From NCBI RefSeq assembly GCF_031157375.1, contig NZ_JAVIFV010000003.1:310001-374000 (forward strand): a DNA stretch of 64,000 bases. Direction: 5' to 3'. This document shows, in pieces, positions 13,435 to 35,064 of the stretch. Each line of letters opens with the position of its first letter. Position 1 is the stretch's first letter. The DNA comes from Sphingosinicella sp. LHD-64. Its GTDB lineage: Bacteria; Pseudomonadota; Alphaproteobacteria; Sphingomonadales; Sphingomonadaceae. Below the pieces are notes generated by a model. It searched no databases, was not told the origin of the DNA, and was given only the letters and a program-made list of their open reading frames with translations. Made by a program: the position numbers and the translations under genes.

Positions 13435-16416
13435 TTAGAAGCGGAAGCTTGCCGAGACGAAGAAGTCCCGACCGAGCACGTCGTACACGCCCGGATAAGT
13501 GTTCGCCTGCTCCTGGTTGTCGCCCATCAGCGGCGGACGCTTGTCGAACAGGTTCTGGACACCGACGTTGACGGTGAAGTTGTCATTCACATCGAACGCA
13601 ACGGTGAGATCGAACAGATCGTACGCACCGATCCGCTCCACGACGAAGTCCGTATCGTCGTCGTCGTCGCGAACCGAGCCGACACGCCGCCAGCGGAAGC
13701 TGGTAGTCAGCGGACCGTCGATCCAGGACAGGCGGCTCGACCACTTCCACTTCGGCGTCGGGTTGCCGCAGTTCAGGCCGAATCGACCCGCGCACTCGAC
13801 CACTTCATCCGGCAGCTCAATGAGCGGGGTGAAGTTGTTCTCCCAGGAATAGTTACCGAGGAAGAAGAAGCTGAGCCGCGAGCTGCCGCCGTTCAGCAGG
13901 CTGAAGTTCAGCGGCAGGCTGTAGTCCACCTGGAAGTCGATGCCTTCTGTCGAAAGCGAGGCCAGGTTGGCGTTGATCGCCGACACGATGTTCGGCGGAC
14001 CGGAGATAACGCCCTGATCGTCGCGGCTGATCAGTCCGCAAATCGCGCTGTTGGCATCCTGGATCGTGTTGTAGCACAAGCTCAAGATGTTGTTGACGCT
14101 GCCGCCGGCGACCGCGATCGCATTGTCGACCTTGATGTTATAGTAGTCGACGGTGACGTTGAGCCTCGGAATGAAGCGCGGCCGGATCACGACGCCCGCC
14201 GTCCAGGTATCGGCGACTTCTTCCTGCAGGTTCGGATTGCCGCCGAAAACGCCCTGAATCTGCGCGTTCGGCTGGAGGGTGGACTGACCGACGCTCGCTT
14301 CGGGCACGCCCGTGGCGACGCAGACTGCACGGATGGTTGGATCCGTGGCAGCCGAAGGAAGTGCGCAAGGATCGGTCGCTGGCGGGAAGCCCACGGCCTG
14401 ACCGCCGAACAGCTCGCCGACGTTCGGCGCGCGGATGGCGCGCTGATATTGGCCGCGGAAGGTGATGTCCCGGATCGGCGCAAGTTCGATGCCGCCCGAA
14501 TAGGTCCACACGCCACCGACCGCCTCGAGCGAGTAGTCGGAATAGCGCGCCGCGCCGCTCAGCTCCAGTCGATGGATGAAATTGTCCTGGATGATCGGCA
14601 CGCGAAGCTCGGCGAACACTTCCCTCGCGTCGTAGCTTCCTTCGGTCGGCTGTCCGGCGTTGAAGCCGACGACATCGCCCGAGGATAGCGCCGTGTCAGG
14701 AATAAACTCGGCAGCCATCGAGCGCCATTCGACGCCGGCGGCGAAGGCGACCGGATCGGTCGCGGTCCCGAAGGTGAACAGCGGGCCGGAGATGCTGGCC
14801 TGCGCCACCTGGAGCTCGGAGATGTCCTGATTCTGCGCCAGGATCGAGATCTGGTTGATGCAGTCCGCGCTCAGCAGGTTCTCGCCGAACACGTTGCAGG
14901 TGCCGTCCGCCGCGAGCCGGGTGAAAGCCGAACGCGAGACGTTGCCGAGCTGCACCGACGCGTTCCGGGTCCGCGAATACATATAGTAGACGTCATAGGT
15001 CAGCGAGTCGGTGATGTTGCCCTTGAGGCCGGTCAGCACGCGGAAGGCGTTGCGGTCGTCGGTGACGTTGCGCGAGGCGATGCCGGTGGTGCGGCCATTG
15101 AGCTGGAGCCGTACGAAGCCGGGCTGCAATGCGCCGAACGAAGCGCTTCCCGCCGCGAATGGCCCGAAAGGGTTCGGTGCGCCCGCGGCGGCCGCGGCCG
15201 CGATCGCCGCCTGCTGATTGGCCGCGATCTGCTGCATCTGGGCAAAGTCGGCGGCCGAGACCAGCGGCTGGATCGCCGCCAGCTCGAAGTCGACATTCTG
15301 GGTGATCGGCGTCGCGGCCAGCTCGTTCTGGACGCGGTTGTTGATGTAGGCCACTTCGGCATAGGCGGTGATGCCGTCGGCGATCTCATATTCGCCATAG
15401 CCGCCGAGCGTCCAACGCTCCTGCGGCACCATCAGATAGTTCGCCGGCGCATAGTTGTACGCATTGGCATCGACATACGGGGTGCTGGTACCCGGGGTGC
15501 CGAAGAAGGCGCCGAGACCAGGATAATTGGTGCCGATGGCGATGGGGAAGCAGTTGTTGCGCGGGATGGCCGGCGGCGGCGCGCCGACCGGCGCGCAGCT
15601 CGCACCCGTGCCAATGGGGATTTCCGGCGCCGCGACAAAGCGACCCTGCGGAACACCGGCGGAACCGCCCGGAATCAACTCGCCATCACCTTCAGTGAAG
15701 GCGAAGAAGGACCAATCGCGATCGGCCTGCATGATCTGGCCGCGATTGTAATATTCACCGTAGACGGTGATGTTGCCGCGGCCGTCGGCGAACTGGGTGC
15801 CCATCGCGATATAGGCGTTGTAACGACGGCCGTCGCCTTCCTCGGTGATGTTGTACTGCGCGCCGGCAATCAGACCGTCGAGATCCTGGCGCAGGCGGAA
15901 GTTGACGACGCCCGCGAGCGCGTCCGAGCCGTAGACCGCCGAAGCGCCGCCGGTGACGACGTCGACGCTGTCGATCAGGAACTGCGGGATCGTGTTGAGA
16001 TCGACCGTCTGGGCCGTATCGAAGAAGATGTAGCGGCGGCCGTTGACCAGCACGAGGTTGCGCTGGGTGCCGAGACCGCGCAGGTTCAGCGTCGCGACGC
16101 CACCGCCAGGGTTGTTCGAGAAGGAGTTGGCACCCGGGATCACCTGCGGCAGGGTGTTGATCACCTGCTCGACGTTGACCGCACCGGAGAGCGTGAACTC
16201 CTCGTTCGACACGACCGCCACGGGGCTGGTCGAGGTGAGGTCGCGCCGGGCGATGCGCGAACCGGTGATGACAATCGCTTCGCCGGTATCGGCCTCCTGA
16301 GAAGCGACCGGCGCCTGATCGGCCTGGTCGTTCTGGGCAAAGGCAGGCGTGGCAATCCCGGTCATACCGAGCAACAGCGTCGACGTGAGCAGACGCTGAC
16401 GAAGAGTGATCTTCAT
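13435..16416 (-). CDS. TonB-dependent outer-membrane receptor
   Basis: 993 residues. Signal peptide of 27 residues ending A-F-A, then a Gln/Ala-rich linker and the plug domain starting E-A-I-V-I-T-G-S-R-I. The plug has the usual L-R-G-L-G segment and the G-G-A-S-A-V-Y-G-S-D-A motif near residue 150. The beta-barrel ends in S-A-S-F-R-F with the terminal aromatic needed for BAM-dependent insertion. TBDRs take up siderophores, cobalamin, glycans or peptides with energy from TonB-ExbBD; the ligand cannot be read here. The ATG at 16416 is chosen because AGGGGACC lies just ahead and the signal peptide begins there; an upstream in-frame ATG at 16506 would add 30 residues ahead of it. Neighbours are peptidases and TPR-hydroxylases, which suggests peptide-like ligands. 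Confidence 0.93.
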   Translation of the reverse strand: MKITLRQRLLTSTLLLGMTGIATPAFAQNDQADQAPVASQEADTGEAIVITGSRIARRDLTSTSPVAVVSNEEFTLSGAVNVEQVINTLPQVIPGANSFSNNPGGGVATLNLRGLGTQRNLVLVNGRRYIFFDTAQTVDLNTIPQFLIDSVDVVTGGASAVYGSDALAGVVNFRLRQDLDGLIAGAQYNITEEGDGRRYNAYIAMGTQFADGRGNITVYGEYYNRGQIMQADRDWSFFAFTEGDGELIPGGSAGVPQGRFVAAPEIPIGTGASCAPVGAPPPAIPRNNCFPIAIGTNYPGLGAFFGTPGTSTPYVDANAYNYAPANYLMVPQERWTLGGYGEYEIADGITAYAEVAYINNRVQNELAATPITQNVDFELAAIQPLVSAADFAQMQQIAANQQAAIAAAAAAGAPNPFGPFAAGSASFGALQPGFVRLQLNGRTTGIASRNVTDDRNAFRVLTGLKGNITDSLTYDVYYMYSRTRNASVQLGNVSRSAFTRLAADGTCNVFGENLLSADCINQISILAQNQDISELQVAQASISGPLFTFGTATDPVAFAAGVEWRSMAAEFIPDTALSSGDVVGFNAGQPTEGSYDAREVFAELRVPIIQDNFIHRLELSGAARYSDYSLEAVGGVWTYSGGIELAPIRDITFRGQYQRAIRAPNVGELFGGQAVGFPPATDPCALPSAATDPTIRAVCVATGVPEASVGQSTLQPNAQIQGVFGGNPNLQEEVADTWTAGVVIRPRFIPRLNVTVDYYNIKVDNAIAVAGGSVNNILSLCYNTIQDANSAICGLISRDDQGVISGPPNIVSAINANLASLSTEGIDFQVDYSLPLNFSLLNGGSSRLSFFFLGNYSWENNFTPLIELPDEVVECAGRFGLNCGNPTPKWKWSSRLSWIDGPLTTSFRWRRVGSVRDDDDDTDFVVERIGAYDLFDLTVAFDVNDNFTVNVGVQNLFDKRPPLMGDNQEQANTYPGVYDVLGRDFFVSASFRF

Positions 16417-16553: not shown

Positions 16554-16593
16554 CCTCTCGAAAGTAAGGCAATTGGACTTTACTTTCGAGAGG
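16554..16593. repeat. Perfect 14-base inverted repeat upstream of the TBDR gene
   Basis: CCTCTCGAAAGTAA at 16554-16567 is exactly complementary to TTACTTTCGAGAGG at 16580-16593, with a 12-base spacer. It could be a repressor site or, in the leader RNA, a long hairpin just ahead of the terminator-like stem. Confidence 0.7.
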
Positions 16594-16738
16594 CGAGTTA
16601 TCGGGACCGTGTAGCAAAAAGGTCACATGCCGGTGGCAGGGCCGGCAACCCGGCGCGACGGAGCACGGCCGGCACCCACTTGCCACCCGGGTCTTTCAAC
16701 CGCTAACTCTCAGCTTCTCACGGCCGACTGGAGCGACC

Positions 16739-17266
16739 ATGCGTCCTGCTTTTCTCTTCCTGCTGGCCCCGGCCATCGTCGCGACGCCGGCCTCCGCCCA
16801 GGAAACAAGCCAGGAGCGCCCGGAGGCGCTGATGCGGGTGCTCGCATGCCGCGCGCTCCAGTCTTCGGAGGAGCGACTGGCCTGCTATGACCGGGAGGTC
16901 GGGGCCTTCGAAGCGGCCGAATCGAGCAATCAACTCGTCGTGATGGACCGAGAGCAGGTTCGCCGCACCCGCCGCACCTTGTTCGGCCTCGCCCTGCCCG
17001 ATCTCGGCGTCTTCGGCGACAACAATCAGGATCCGCAGGAAGCCGTCGCCGAAATCCAGACGACGATCCGCAGCGCCGCGCAGAACCCTCTCGGCAAATG
17101 GATCATCGTCCTGGAGGATGGCGCCCGCTGGATCCAGACCGACGTGCGCGAGCTGGCGCGAGAGCCGCGCGGAGGCATGCCGATCCGCATTCGCCGGGCG
17201 GCGATGGGCTCCTACCTCGCCAATATCGACAATCAGGTCGCGGTGCGCGTGCGCCGCGAGCGCTAA
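16739..17266 (+). CDS. Conserved-type secreted hypothetical protein
   Basis: 175 residues with a clean signal peptide (MRPAFLFLLAPAIVATPASA, cut after residue 20). Two cysteines close together (C-R-A-L-Q-S...L-A-C-Y-D, residues about 37-50) probably form a disulfide in the periplasm. The second half is beta-rich, with G-K-W-I-I-V-L-E-D-G-A-R-W-I-Q-T and ending in a basic strand. I recognise no named domain; the pattern is like small envelope proteins of sphingomonads. GGAG lies seven bases before the ATG. It is divergent from the TBDR gene and its stop codon touches the first base of the structured element at 17266. Confidence 0.7.
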   Translation: MRPAFLFLLAPAIVATPASAQETSQERPEALMRVLACRALQSSEERLACYDREVGAFEAAESSNQLVVMDREQVRRTRRTLFGLALPDLGVFGDNNQDPQEAVAEIQTTIRSAAQNPLGKWIIVLEDGARWIQTDVRELAREPRGGMPIRIRRAAMGSYLANIDNQVAVRVRRER

Positions 17267-17538
17267 GGGTCCAGACCCGTAACCGGCAATGGTCGGGATC
17301 GCTTGGAGAGGCCTGCTGGCAAGGAGCGCAGCGCAGTCGCGTAGCTGACCGCTACGCGCAAGCAAGCGACGTAGCCAGCGGGCCTCTCCAGGCGACCGCT
17401 GAAGGCGGCGGGCGGCTTTTGGTGCAGGGCGGCGTCGCTCGTCGGTCACGATGCGTTGAGCATCGCTTCCTCCTCGCTCCTTGACCTGCACCAGAATCCA
17501 CTCCGTCACGACCGTTGCCAGTTATGGGTCTGGACCCT
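17266..17538 (+). ncRNA. Nested-palindromic element, candidate structured RNA
   Basis: 273 bases with five nested stems. P1: 17266-17295 pairs with 17509-17538 (30 positions, three not Watson-Crick). P2: 17305-17320 with 17374-17389 (16, one exception). P3: CGCGTAGC/GCTACGCG at 17338-17358 inside P2. P4: 17417-17428 with 17485-17496 (12, one exception). P5: CGATGC/GCATCG at 17449-17465 inside P4. Read as plus-strand RNA, four of the five exceptions are G-U wobbles and only one is a C-A mismatch. P1 closes two side arms, giving a three-way-junction shape. No coding potential fits. It fills nearly all the space between two convergent genes, so it could be a 3'-UTR element, an independent RNA or a palindromic mobile repeat. 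Confidence 0.5.
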
Positions 17539-17543
17539 AATCC

Positions 17544-18380
17544 TCATTCCATCGCGCCGGCCGCCGCCTGCGGATCGAGCCGGGCCCCGTTCCAGACCAG
17601 GCTCCAGTGGAGATGCGGGCCCGTGGCGCGCCCGGTGGCGCCCACGACGCCGATCGGCTGGCCCTGCCGCACCACCTCCCCCTCGCGCACGTGGGCACGC
17701 GCGAGATGCAGGAAGGCGCTGCTGAGGCCCATGCCGTGGTCGATGATGACGAGGTTGCCCTCCAGGCTGAACATCGGCGGAGACGCCAGCACGACGGCCC
17801 CGTCCGCGGGTGCGAAGACGATCGCGCCGGCCCCAGCGGCAATGTCCGTGCCACTGTGGTAGGCGGCGGGAACGCCGCGATAGATGCGCTGCGCCCCGAA
17901 CCGTCCGCTGATTCGCCCGCGCGCCGGCCAGATCAAGCGCTGTGTCCAGCCCATGCTGTCCGAACGCCGAGCGCGCGCCGCGCCGATCCGGGCAAGCTCG
18001 CGTTCACGCCGGCGCCGGAACTCCGGCGTGGGGCCATCGGACGGACGCGCCATGTTCACCCGCTGGATTGGCCAGATGCGCGCGGCGACCGATATGATCT
18101 GCGCCACCTCGGTGCCGTCCGCCAGTCGAGCAACCAATCGCATGCTCGAAGGCGCATCGCGGTCGAAGCCGACGAGAAACCGGCCATCCGGCGCAACGGG
18201 CACGTGACGGCCATCCAGTGTCAGCGATTGAGTTCCGGCCGGCGCGCGGGCGCGCAGCAGCGCGCCCTGCCCGGGTTCGCCATACAGCTGAAATATGTGG
18301 TCCGGGGGTCCCTGGGCGATGCCGGCAGAAGCGAACAGCCCGATCGCACATGCAATCACGCGCTGGCTCGCTGCGCGCAT
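17544..18380 (-). CDS. M23 family peptidase (LytM/peptidoglycan endopeptidase domain), exported
   Basis: 278 residues from the ATG at 18380, which gives a good signal peptide (M-R-A-A-S-Q-R-V then hydrophobic to G-I-A-Q-G). The C-terminal half is a LytM domain: zinc ligands in Y-H-S-G-T-D near residue 175 and H-L-H near residue 258, with the G-R-A-T-G-P ahead of H-L-H. Members cut peptide cross-links in peptidoglycan or regulate amidases from the periplasm. The N-terminal 130 residues are a non-catalytic beta-rich part. The start codon follows the stop of the TPR/hydroxylase gene after one base (TGA-C-ATG), so the two are cotranscribed. It converges on the structured element at 17266-17538. 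Confidence 0.88.
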   Translation of the reverse strand: MRAASQRVIACAIGLFASAGIAQGPPDHIFQLYGEPGQGALLRARAPAGTQSLTLDGRHVPVAPDGRFLVGFDRDAPSSMRLVARLADGTEVAQIISVAARIWPIQRVNMARPSDGPTPEFRRRRERELARIGAARARRSDSMGWTQRLIWPARGRISGRFGAQRIYRGVPAAYHSGTDIAAGAGAIVFAPADGAVVLASPPMFSLEGNLVIIDHGMGLSSAFLHLARAHVREGEVVRQGQPIGVVGATGRATGPHLHWSLVWNGARLDPQAAAGAME

Positions 18381-18381
18381 G

Positions 18382-19623
18382 TCAGCCGACAACGCGCACC
18401 ACGGCCCGCTCCGCCTCGGTGAGAAGTGGATTCCAGACATCGAGGATCAGGATGGCGCGCGGCCGATCGCTGTCGTTCCAGGCTTCGTGCTCGATCGTGT
18501 CGTCGAACGCCCAGGCCTCGCCCTCGCGCCATTCGCGCGTCTCGGCGCCGACCCTGAAGCCGCAGCCGTCCGGCACGACGAGCGGAAGATGGACGGTCGT
18601 GCGCACGTTGCTCGATCCGGTGTGCGGCGGAATGCGCGTGCGCGGCTCCAGGATCGAGAACATCACCGTCGGCGCCTTGCCGGGATGGTCCATCAGCGGG
18701 ACCGCTTCCAGCGCGTGCGTCGTGGCAGGGCAGCGGGCGCAATGCGCCTCCTGCTTCACCCCGTCCTTCCACAGGAACCAGGCGCTCCAGCGTGGCGAAT
18801 GATTGAGCTCCGTCCACTGGTTGACCGGCTCGGTCGGCGCGAAGGCGACATAGGGGCGAAAGTCATCGTCGCTTTCGTCCCAGAGCGAGACCAGCTCGCG
18901 CCGGATCTCGGGAGTCGCGGCTTCCAGCGATTCGAACCAGGGAAAGCAGGTCCGGTCGAAGAACTCGATCGCGGGGAGATAGGGAAAATGCCCATCGACC
19001 GGCTGTTGCTGATAGACTCTTCGCCGGCCGAACTTCTGGTCGACATAACCCTGGACCCGCCTGAGGTCGGCATCCGCATGGGTTGTATAGACGGCGGCCA
19101 GCCGATCCTCGAACGTGTCGGACCGGCGTGTATCCTCGGCGCGAACAATCTCGCGACCGTGATCGAGCGCCTGCCGCACCGCCTGAGGCAGGCTGGACGA
19201 ATCCTCAGTCGCAGCCAGGAGCGCGCGATAGATATCTGCGCTTTCCGGAACACGGCTGACGCGCTCCAGCGCCTGCGCCTTCTGCAGGACAGCCGGCAGA
19301 AGATGAGGGTCGATCGCGAGCGCGCGGTCCAGGCTGGCGATCTCGCCGGGCACGTCGCCGGCACTGCGCTGCGCCTGGGCCAGATTGAGCCACAGCGGCG
19401 GTGCCGCCGGGTCCGCGGCGGTCGCGCGCTCGAAATAGCCGATGGCGCCGCGCGAATCGCCCGCCCCGAGGGCGATGAGTCCGAGAGAGTTCAGGGCAGC
19501 GGCATGGCCGGGCTGGCGTGCGACCAGCATCTCGAGCAGCCGCCTCGCTTCCCCCGCGTCTCCCCGGCGACGCGCTTCGTTCGCCCGCGCCAGCAAGTCT
19601 TCCGGTCCCCCCGCGGGCGTCAT
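18382..19623 (-). CDS. TPR protein with aspartyl/asparaginyl beta-hydroxylase domain
   Basis: 413 residues. Residues 1 to about 130 are TPR-like repeats (A-L-N-S-L-G-L-I-A-L-G-A-G unit and following). Residues from about 230 match the aspartyl/asparaginyl beta-hydroxylase family. The iron/2OG core includes S-I-L-E-P-R-T-R-I-P-P-H-T-G-S with its histidine, R-T-T-V-H-L-P-L, and E-G-E-A-W-A-F-D-D-T-I-E-H-E-A-W-N with the second histidine. The family hydroxylates Asp/Asn side chains in proteins or peptides, or fatty acyl chains in some bacterial members. No signal peptide, so cytosolic. It lies in a minus-strand run xseA, DUF2093, this gene, M23 peptidase with very short gaps, though the last two look like additions to a housekeeping pair. 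Confidence 0.87.
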   Translation of the reverse strand: MTPAGGPEDLLARANEARRRGDAGEARRLLEMLVARQPGHAAALNSLGLIALGAGDSRGAIGYFERATAADPAAPPLWLNLAQAQRSAGDVPGEIASLDRALAIDPHLLPAVLQKAQALERVSRVPESADIYRALLAATEDSSSLPQAVRQALDHGREIVRAEDTRRSDTFEDRLAAVYTTHADADLRRVQGYVDQKFGRRRVYQQQPVDGHFPYLPAIEFFDRTCFPWFESLEAATPEIRRELVSLWDESDDDFRPYVAFAPTEPVNQWTELNHSPRWSAWFLWKDGVKQEAHCARCPATTHALEAVPLMDHPGKAPTVMFSILEPRTRIPPHTGSSNVRTTVHLPLVVPDGCGFRVGAETREWREGEAWAFDDTIEHEAWNDSDRPRAILILDVWNPLLTEAERAVVRVVG

Positions 19624-34988: not shown

Positions 34989-35064
34989 GCCCAGGTAGCT
35001 CAGTTGGTAGAGCACGTGACTGAAAATCACGGTGTCGGTGGTTCGATCCCGCCCCTGGGCACCA
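34989..35064 (+). tRNA. tRNA-Phe (anticodon GAA)
   Basis: 76 bases including an encoded CCA. Acceptor stem GCCCAGG/CCTGGGC, D-stem GCTC/GAGC, anticodon stem CGTGA/TCACG with loop CTGAAAA (anticodon GAA), five-base variable loop, T-arm GGTGG-TTCGATC-CCGCC. All stems pair fully. Confidence 0.98.

What the first reader, a model, noticed from the sequence alone, without database searches (positions are those of the whole stretch)
17266..17538. 273-nt nested palindrome with wobble-type imperfections: candidate new structured RNA
Five stems nest into a closed three-way-junction-like shape: P1 30 positions, P2 16, P3 8, P4 12, P5 6. There are five non-Watson-Crick positions over all stems. Four become G-U pairs when read as plus-strand RNA (two in P1, one each in P2 and P4); only one in P1 is a C-A mismatch. 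On the minus strand the same four would be A-C mismatches, so there is a strand preference, as expected from selection on RNA pairing. It fills the gap between two convergent genes, sharing a base with the upstream stop codon. It does not match any riboswitch I know and has no open frame. A palindromic mobile repeat is the main alternative.
Basis: partly seen in the sequence, partly recalled or inferred. Interest (0 to 1): 0.75.

Follow-up and report, generated by a model that had tools for sequence, protein, structure and literature searches.

The report
Stop-codon-sparing mobile DNA palindrome
The 273-base palindrome is one copy of a small mobile DNA element, seen in several bacterial groups, that inserts into the letters TA (often those of a stop codon, which it rebuilds) and keeps its two ends complementary while their sequence changes almost freely; it was not shown to be a working RNA.

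Summary
The palindrome is real: RNA fold z = -12, P1 27 of 30 Watson-Crick. It is not unique: copies lie at unrelated sites in the same genome, in 17 of 26 genus genomes and 47 of 249 family genomes from 29 of 96 genera; named records include Streptomyces and Azotobacter plasmids and contigs labelled Gordonia, Aureimonas and Bacteroidales. Orthologous sites without it point to insertion at TA. Of 104 gene 3' ends facing a copy, 56 lie within 6 nt of it; insertion there rebuilds the stop. In 85 anchored copies arms pair at 94.7% within a copy, 39.5% between copies. Many sister arms resemble terminal repeats of IS630-family transposons. Best reading: an IS630-type MITE with long self-complementary arms around a conserved, covarying double-hairpin core. 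Against it: the window genome has no recognised IS630 (DDE_3) transposase, and no IS630 end of the window's TAGG type was found. What the core does is open.

The parts
17264..17265 (.). left copy of the target TA (also the first two letters of the upstream stop codon TAA)
   Evidence: sequence; orthologous site without the element in L100 has a single CTAG
17266..17295 (.). left arm of P1 (terminal inverted repeat)
   Evidence: 27 of 30 Watson-Crick with 17509-17538
17299..17395 (+). hairpin 1 (P2 and its tip)
   Evidence: arms 17299-17320 and 17374-17395, 91% complementary; absent from the short form of the family, by size and inspection
17389..17515 (+). conserved core, hairpin 2 (match of covariance model R1, 127.7 bits)
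   Evidence: G000:C3:327389-327515; covariation in 26 copies
17440..17483 (+). best conserved stretch, CGTCGGTCAC-stem-loop-GCTTCCTCCTCGCTCCTT
   Evidence: alignment A1; related motif in Gordonia, Bacteroidales and Streptomyces records
17509..17538 (.). right arm of P1
   Evidence: sequence
16739..17266 (+). upstream gene whose stop codon holds the target TA
   Evidence: ORF; relatives in 22 of 26 genus genomes
17544..18440 (-). convergent downstream gene (M23-type peptidase, name recalled)
   Evidence: ORF

Best explanation
A non-autonomous mobile DNA element (MITE) of the IS630 / Tc1-mariner type. Shown: it is dispersed; comparison with sites that lack it places it at a TA that then stands on both sides; its ends are long inverted repeats beginning G or AG after the TA, so that insertion into the TA of a stop codon leaves a TAG or TAA stop; copies come in long (265-280 nt), short (161-194 nt) and arms-only (53 nt) forms; arms pair within a copy but differ between copies. 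Inferred: an IS630-family transposase acting in trans moves it, different arm types suiting different IS630 subfamilies; copies collect at stop codons because such insertions do no harm; the arms stay complementary because the extruded DNA hairpin matters to the element or because one arm is recopied from the other. Guess: the conserved double-hairpin core serves mobility as folded DNA.
For: Unrelated sites within one genome. Sites without the element: L100; tatA site empty in G000 and G018, filled in G009, arms only in G017; Streptomyces GNAT/AraC pair overlapping by 4 nt (CTAA or CTAA-like) in three plasmids and holding the element in a fourth. 56 of 104 facing gene 3' ends within 6 nt of an end, against 4 of 104 facing 5' ends. 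IS630 loci: 40 of 58 terminal-repeat ends begin TAGA, as do 56 of 138 element ends; 32 of 58 match an element arm better than all 50 shuffles, best 20 of 22. Arm pairing 94.7% within against 39.5% between copies, 0 of 1000 permutations; 73 G-U to 71 A-C.
Against: No DDE_3 (IS630) match in the window genome, 3 of 8 carriers searched; DDE_3 no commoner in carriers, 10 of 47 against 46 of 202. None of 58 IS630 ends begins TAGG, the window's type, though 55 of 138 element ends do. IS630 ends are less perfect than the element's arms (17.0 against 22.6 of 24; sets chosen by cut-offs) and none of 63 IS630 loci carries the core. By a strict anchor only 30 of 95 copies keep TAG and CTA at both ends. 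No autonomous copy found. Arms so variable are unusual for a transposase that reads end sequence.
Confidence: 0.7

Rival explanations
1. A structured functional RNA, possibly spread by a mobile element: the core is transcribed and its fold does a job in the cell.
For: Core stems covary: 9 of 28 pairs changed on both sides, score 0.202 against 0.071 in shuffles, 0 of 500. Best conserved letters lie around an apical hairpin, as in many RNAs. Conserved over very different arms.
Against: No G-U excess in P1 (73 to 71). Copy number 1 to 18 and many related genomes without it. Mixed gene context, 29 convergent, 46 codirectional, 29 divergent. No Rfam family. Both strands fold about equally. Strand bias inside the core stems was not counted.
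Confidence: 0.1
2. A REP-doublet (REPIN-like) element moved as single-stranded DNA by a Y1/HUH transposase that reads hairpins; TA at both ends would be target plus cleavage-site likeness.
For: Two hairpins with related motifs in inverted order (by eye); arms read by structure, not sequence. REP dimers inside long palindromes, and CGTC repeats without a known transposase, are described in PMC3733652 (passages).
Against: No Y1_Tnp match in the window genome; Y1 in 7 of 17 carriers and 4 of 9 non-carriers of the genus. TA appears duplicated at three compared sites. Element far longer and rarer than REPs.
Confidence: 0.12
3. A host-kept bidirectional terminator or mRNA 3' stabiliser at gene ends, kept for that job.
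For: Peak at gene 3' ends; the window copy lies between convergent genes.
Against: Only 29 of 104 copies are between convergent genes (heuristic gene calls). Relatives keep the same genes without it. TA targeting with stop regeneration explains the peak.
Confidence: 0.05

Closest known systems
MITEs of the IS630 / Tc1-mariner family (e.g. Nezha, Chunjie; recalled, from no call)
   Same: TA target, no transposase, inverted ends, ends resembling those of IS630-family transposons
   Different: Here arms pair almost perfectly over 25-35 bp yet differ between copies of one genome, and a folded core is conserved across very different hosts
CGTC- and GTAG-tagged REPs and REP dimers inside long palindromes (PMC3733652, passages seen)
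   Same: Inverted hairpin pair inside a long palindrome reported for Anabaena variabilis and Halothiobacillus neapolitanus; CGTC repeats lack a known transposase
   Different: REPs are 20-40 bp and often numerous; this element is 160-280 bp with 1-18 copies per genome. I made no sequence comparison with published REP consensus sequences
MITEPsy1 of Pseudomonas syringae (PMC3189936, passages seen)
   Same: Small non-coding element that targets CTAG or YTAA
   Different: 100 nt, 18-nt ends, 4-nt duplication, ascribed to IS5-family ISPsy2; here TA is the only letters repeated in the compared sites
ERIC elements (recalled)
   Same: Large imperfect palindromes in intergenic DNA
   Different: Not compared by sequence here; other hosts

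Membership tests
IS630-family MITE | TA target duplicated on insertion | tested here: met
   Three sites compared with and without the element; but strict TAG..CTA at both ends in only 30 of 95 copies
IS630-family MITE | ends match those of an IS630-family transposon | tested here: inconclusive
   Met for TAGA-type sister copies (32 of 58 IS630 ends exceed all 50 shuffles); not met for the window's TAGG type (0 of 58 IS630 ends)
IS630-family MITE | no transposase gene inside | tested here: met
   273 nt; only short mechanical ORFs cross it
IS630-family MITE | transposase available in the same genome | tested here: not met
   No DDE_3 match in G000; presence not linked to carriage, 10 of 47 against 46 of 202. 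This is not required of a relict MITE
REP / REPIN | 20-40 bp tagged hairpin units in high copy | tested here: not met
   Element 161-280 nt in 106 of 113 copies, 1-18 copies per genome
REP / REPIN | linked Y1 (RAYT) transposase | tested here: not met
   No Y1_Tnp in G000; no link in the genus, 7 of 17 against 4 of 9
Known Rfam RNA family | match at gathering score | tested here: not met
   Only a tRNA in the window; weak chance matches to eukaryotic families below gathering; none in three other copies
Structured functional RNA | covarying helices | tested here: met
   does not tell RNA from folded DNA
Structured functional RNA | G-U tolerated more than A-C on the transcribed strand | tested here: not met
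   P1: 73 G-U to 71 A-C over 99 copies; core helices not counted for this
Structured functional RNA | transcription | not testable with these tools
   no RNA data

The most novel reading that the evidence does not exclude
A widespread mobile DNA fold: one conserved double-hairpin core that has changed its terminal repeats many times to suit different IS630-type transposases, whose two ends must pair with each other rather than carry one fixed sequence, and which is read as extruded DNA. Transposition would then depend on both end letters and whole-element folding, a mixed DDE and hairpin mode that I did not find in the papers I could search.
Probability: 0.3. Interest if true: 0.8.

Novelty: new variant of a known kind. 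Interest (0 to 1): 0.55.

Why it matters
It offers a countable case of terminal repeats that covary like RNA helices but without RNA's G-U bias, which makes it possible to separate selection on DNA folding (or recopying of one arm) from selection on RNA. It explains why some palindromic repeats sit exactly on stop codons: TA targeting plus an element that starts with G or AG rebuilds the stop, even where two convergent genes overlap. The core motif finds copies whose arms share nothing, which a search by arm sequence would treat as unrelated.

Tried and rejected
Known RNA: Rfam at gathering score and permissive gave nothing usable. Viral origin: an exact pattern in IMG/VR and blastn against phage records found nothing. 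Pre-existing palindrome as insertion target: rejected, because compared sites without the element lack the arms. Autonomous copy with a transposase between the arms: not seen with one arm type in 10 genomes; hits were element pairs, arms-only forms, one interrupted copy or contig ends. Plasmid searches with the Muribaculaceae, Aureimonas and one TAGA-type sphingomonad copy found nothing. IS630 beside the element in Azotobacter and S. cavourensis: probably shared TA targets; the S. cavourensis IS630 ends differ from the element's arms. Tandem G.A rod in the core: 10 of 11 positions fit, but 231 of 20000 shuffles do as well, so only suggestive. The first arm finder was too permissive in GC-rich DNA and was replaced. 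The arm script missed the outer ends of L360, L417, L419 and L422; L360 was placed by string search. Taxon check of one Gordonia-labelled and one Muribaculaceae-labelled contig by NCBIfam names was not informative. No account of the family seen in literature searches (open-licence PMC only; listings and abstracts, plus passages of two papers). I had three paper searches left unused.

Rows dropped: 129 copies were used for arm work (37 genus, 80 family, 12 named) out of 66 genus hits, 103 family hits (genus ones included) and 80 listed named loci. 16 of 129 fell below score 17; of the 113 left, 14 had gapped arms and were left out of the mismatch counts, and 14 more could not be anchored on AG.

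Full report
OBSERVATION. The stretch 17266-17538 folds far better than shuffles (z -12.0, 0 of 200).

IT IS A DISPERSED REPEAT. In the window's genome BLAST finds a second near-full copy (91% identity over query 1-264), a full-length copy with a different first hairpin, two partial copies at contig edges, and a lone right arm. A covariance model of the core, built from 26 copies, hits 17 of 26 genus genomes at E <= 0.01 and 47 of 249 family genomes from 29 of 96 genera at E <= 0.001. Eight genomes behind such loci held 1 to 18 core matches each at E <= 0.01. Taxonomy of the Gordonia and Bacteroidales contigs was not confirmed independently. Complete plasmid records give firmer names: a core variant in Azotobacter chroococcum (35% of the query, 74.7% identity, E 2e-3), 7 Streptomyces records with a Gordonia query and 41 Streptomyces records with a Streptomyces query, of which at least 5 match only the flanking genes. 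A strict pattern over 398 genomes drawn across the phylum found 5, all in the window's own family.

IT INSERTS AT TA AND SPARES STOP CODONS. The genome with the closest upstream gene reads GCTAGGCG where the window has the element between TA and TA (L100). At the tatA site (name recalled) G000 and G018 are empty, G009 holds an element with one hairpin, and G017 holds only paired arms. In Streptomyces sp. NBC_01343 the element lies between a GNAT gene ending at 1952 and a convergent AraC gene ending at 2124 of L360; in three plasmids without it the same two genes overlap by four bases (405-408) that read CTAA. Both stops survive because the element begins with G after TA. Over 104 copies with a gene called on both sides (107 loci, 3 without; my own ORF heuristic), 56 of 104 facing 3' ends lie within 6 nt of an element end, against 4 of 104 facing 5' ends. 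NCBI annotation agrees: of 12 annotated Streptomyces copies fetched, 7 have a stop at an end (L360, L361, L418, L423, L424, L425, L426), 2 do not (L421, L428), and in 3 my script did not find the outer end (L417, L419, L422). Against a tidy picture: by a strict anchor only 30 of 95 copies keep TAG and CTA at both ends; where TA could be placed at both ends (54 copies) it is preceded by C or T in 52 and followed by A or G in 49.

ARMS COVARY, WITHOUT RNA BIAS. 113 of 129 copies gave an arm pair scoring 17 or more. As a control for the search itself, right regions from other genomes reached that in 5 of 258 trials, own pairs in 112 of 129. In 85 copies anchored on AG (of 99 with ungapped arms) pairing is 94.7% within a copy, 39.5% between copies and 59% between copies of one genome; 0 of 1000 permutations reach it; the left arms form 30 clusters at 70% identity. 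111 of 113 left arms are distinct over 22 nt, and 83 of 113 copies are 265-280 nt, 23 are 161-194 nt. Over the 99 copies (2946 pairs) mismatches are G-U 73, A-C 71 (p 0.93); in the outer 20 positions 23 and 34 (p 0.18). Selection on RNA pairing predicts an excess of G-U on one strand; none is seen in P1. In the core 9 of 28 pairs show changes on both sides and the covariation score is 0.202 against 0.071, 0 of 500 shuffles; this does not tell RNA from folded DNA, and relatedness of copies inflates such scores.

WHO MOVES IT. The window genome has no DDE_3 (IS630) match and no Y1 match. Neither enzyme is commoner in carriers: DDE_3 10 of 47 against 46 of 202, Y1 7 of 17 against 4 of 9. Yet of 63 IS630 loci read (one read twice), 29 showed terminal repeats by my rule; 40 of these 58 ends begin TAGA, as do 56 of 138 element ends, and 32 of 58 resemble an element arm better than any of 50 shuffles, the best at 20 of 22 positions. 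A DNA search with one such IS630 end finds plasmid records in alphaproteobacteria, the top one annotated IS630 family transposase. None of the 58 begins TAGG, the window's own type, which 55 of 138 element ends share. None of the 63 IS630 loci carries the core (best E 0.74), and IS630 ends are less perfect than the element's arms (17.0 against 22.6 of 24; the two sets were chosen by different cut-offs).

READING. An IS630-type MITE with a conserved folded core is the best account. Arm pairing beyond what IS630 ends show suggests that the extruded hairpin matters, or that one arm is recopied from the other. The two hairpins carry related motifs in inverted order (by eye), and one strand of hairpin 2 can be written as a rod with tandem G.A mismatches, but that test is weak (231 of 20000 shuffles).

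WHAT IS KNOWN. The nearest published things I saw are REP dimers in long palindromes (PMC3733652, passages) and MITEPsy1 with its CTAG or YTAA target (PMC3189936, passages). I found no account of this family in searches, which cover open-licence papers only.

Noticed in passing
window 16555-16594: A separate near-perfect inverted repeat (cctctcgaaagtaa ... ttactttcgagagg) lies in the gap upstream of the 16739 gene and just before the start of the minus-strand gene ending at 13435; seen by eye.
   Followed up: no
L010 (G000:C1:1345428-1345471), L060, L061: Lone right arms lie just upstream of start codons and look like outward promoters (TTGCC, about 16 nt, CCCTA); arms of several full copies also lie 10-30 nt before a start. 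Promoter activity was not tested.
   Followed up: partly
L256, L267, L271 (G266): In these copies the arm pair is flipped relative to the core (CAACGG left, CCATTG right), so G-U on one strand becomes A-C.
   Followed up: partly
L399 and L403 (G117): Arms-only 53-bp hairpins of the same family sit directly at a TAG, without the core.
   Followed up: partly
G000:C4 end and G000:C1 start (L003, L004): Two contigs of the window's assembly break inside copies of this element, so one more full copy may be split between them.
   Followed up: no
L489 (NZ_CP101398.1 132000-136000): An IS630-family element and a second transposon lie end to end beside a Streptomyces copy, apparently using neighbouring TA sites.
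   Followed up: partly
window 34989-35064: tRNA-Phe (gaa) on the plus strand.
   Followed up: no
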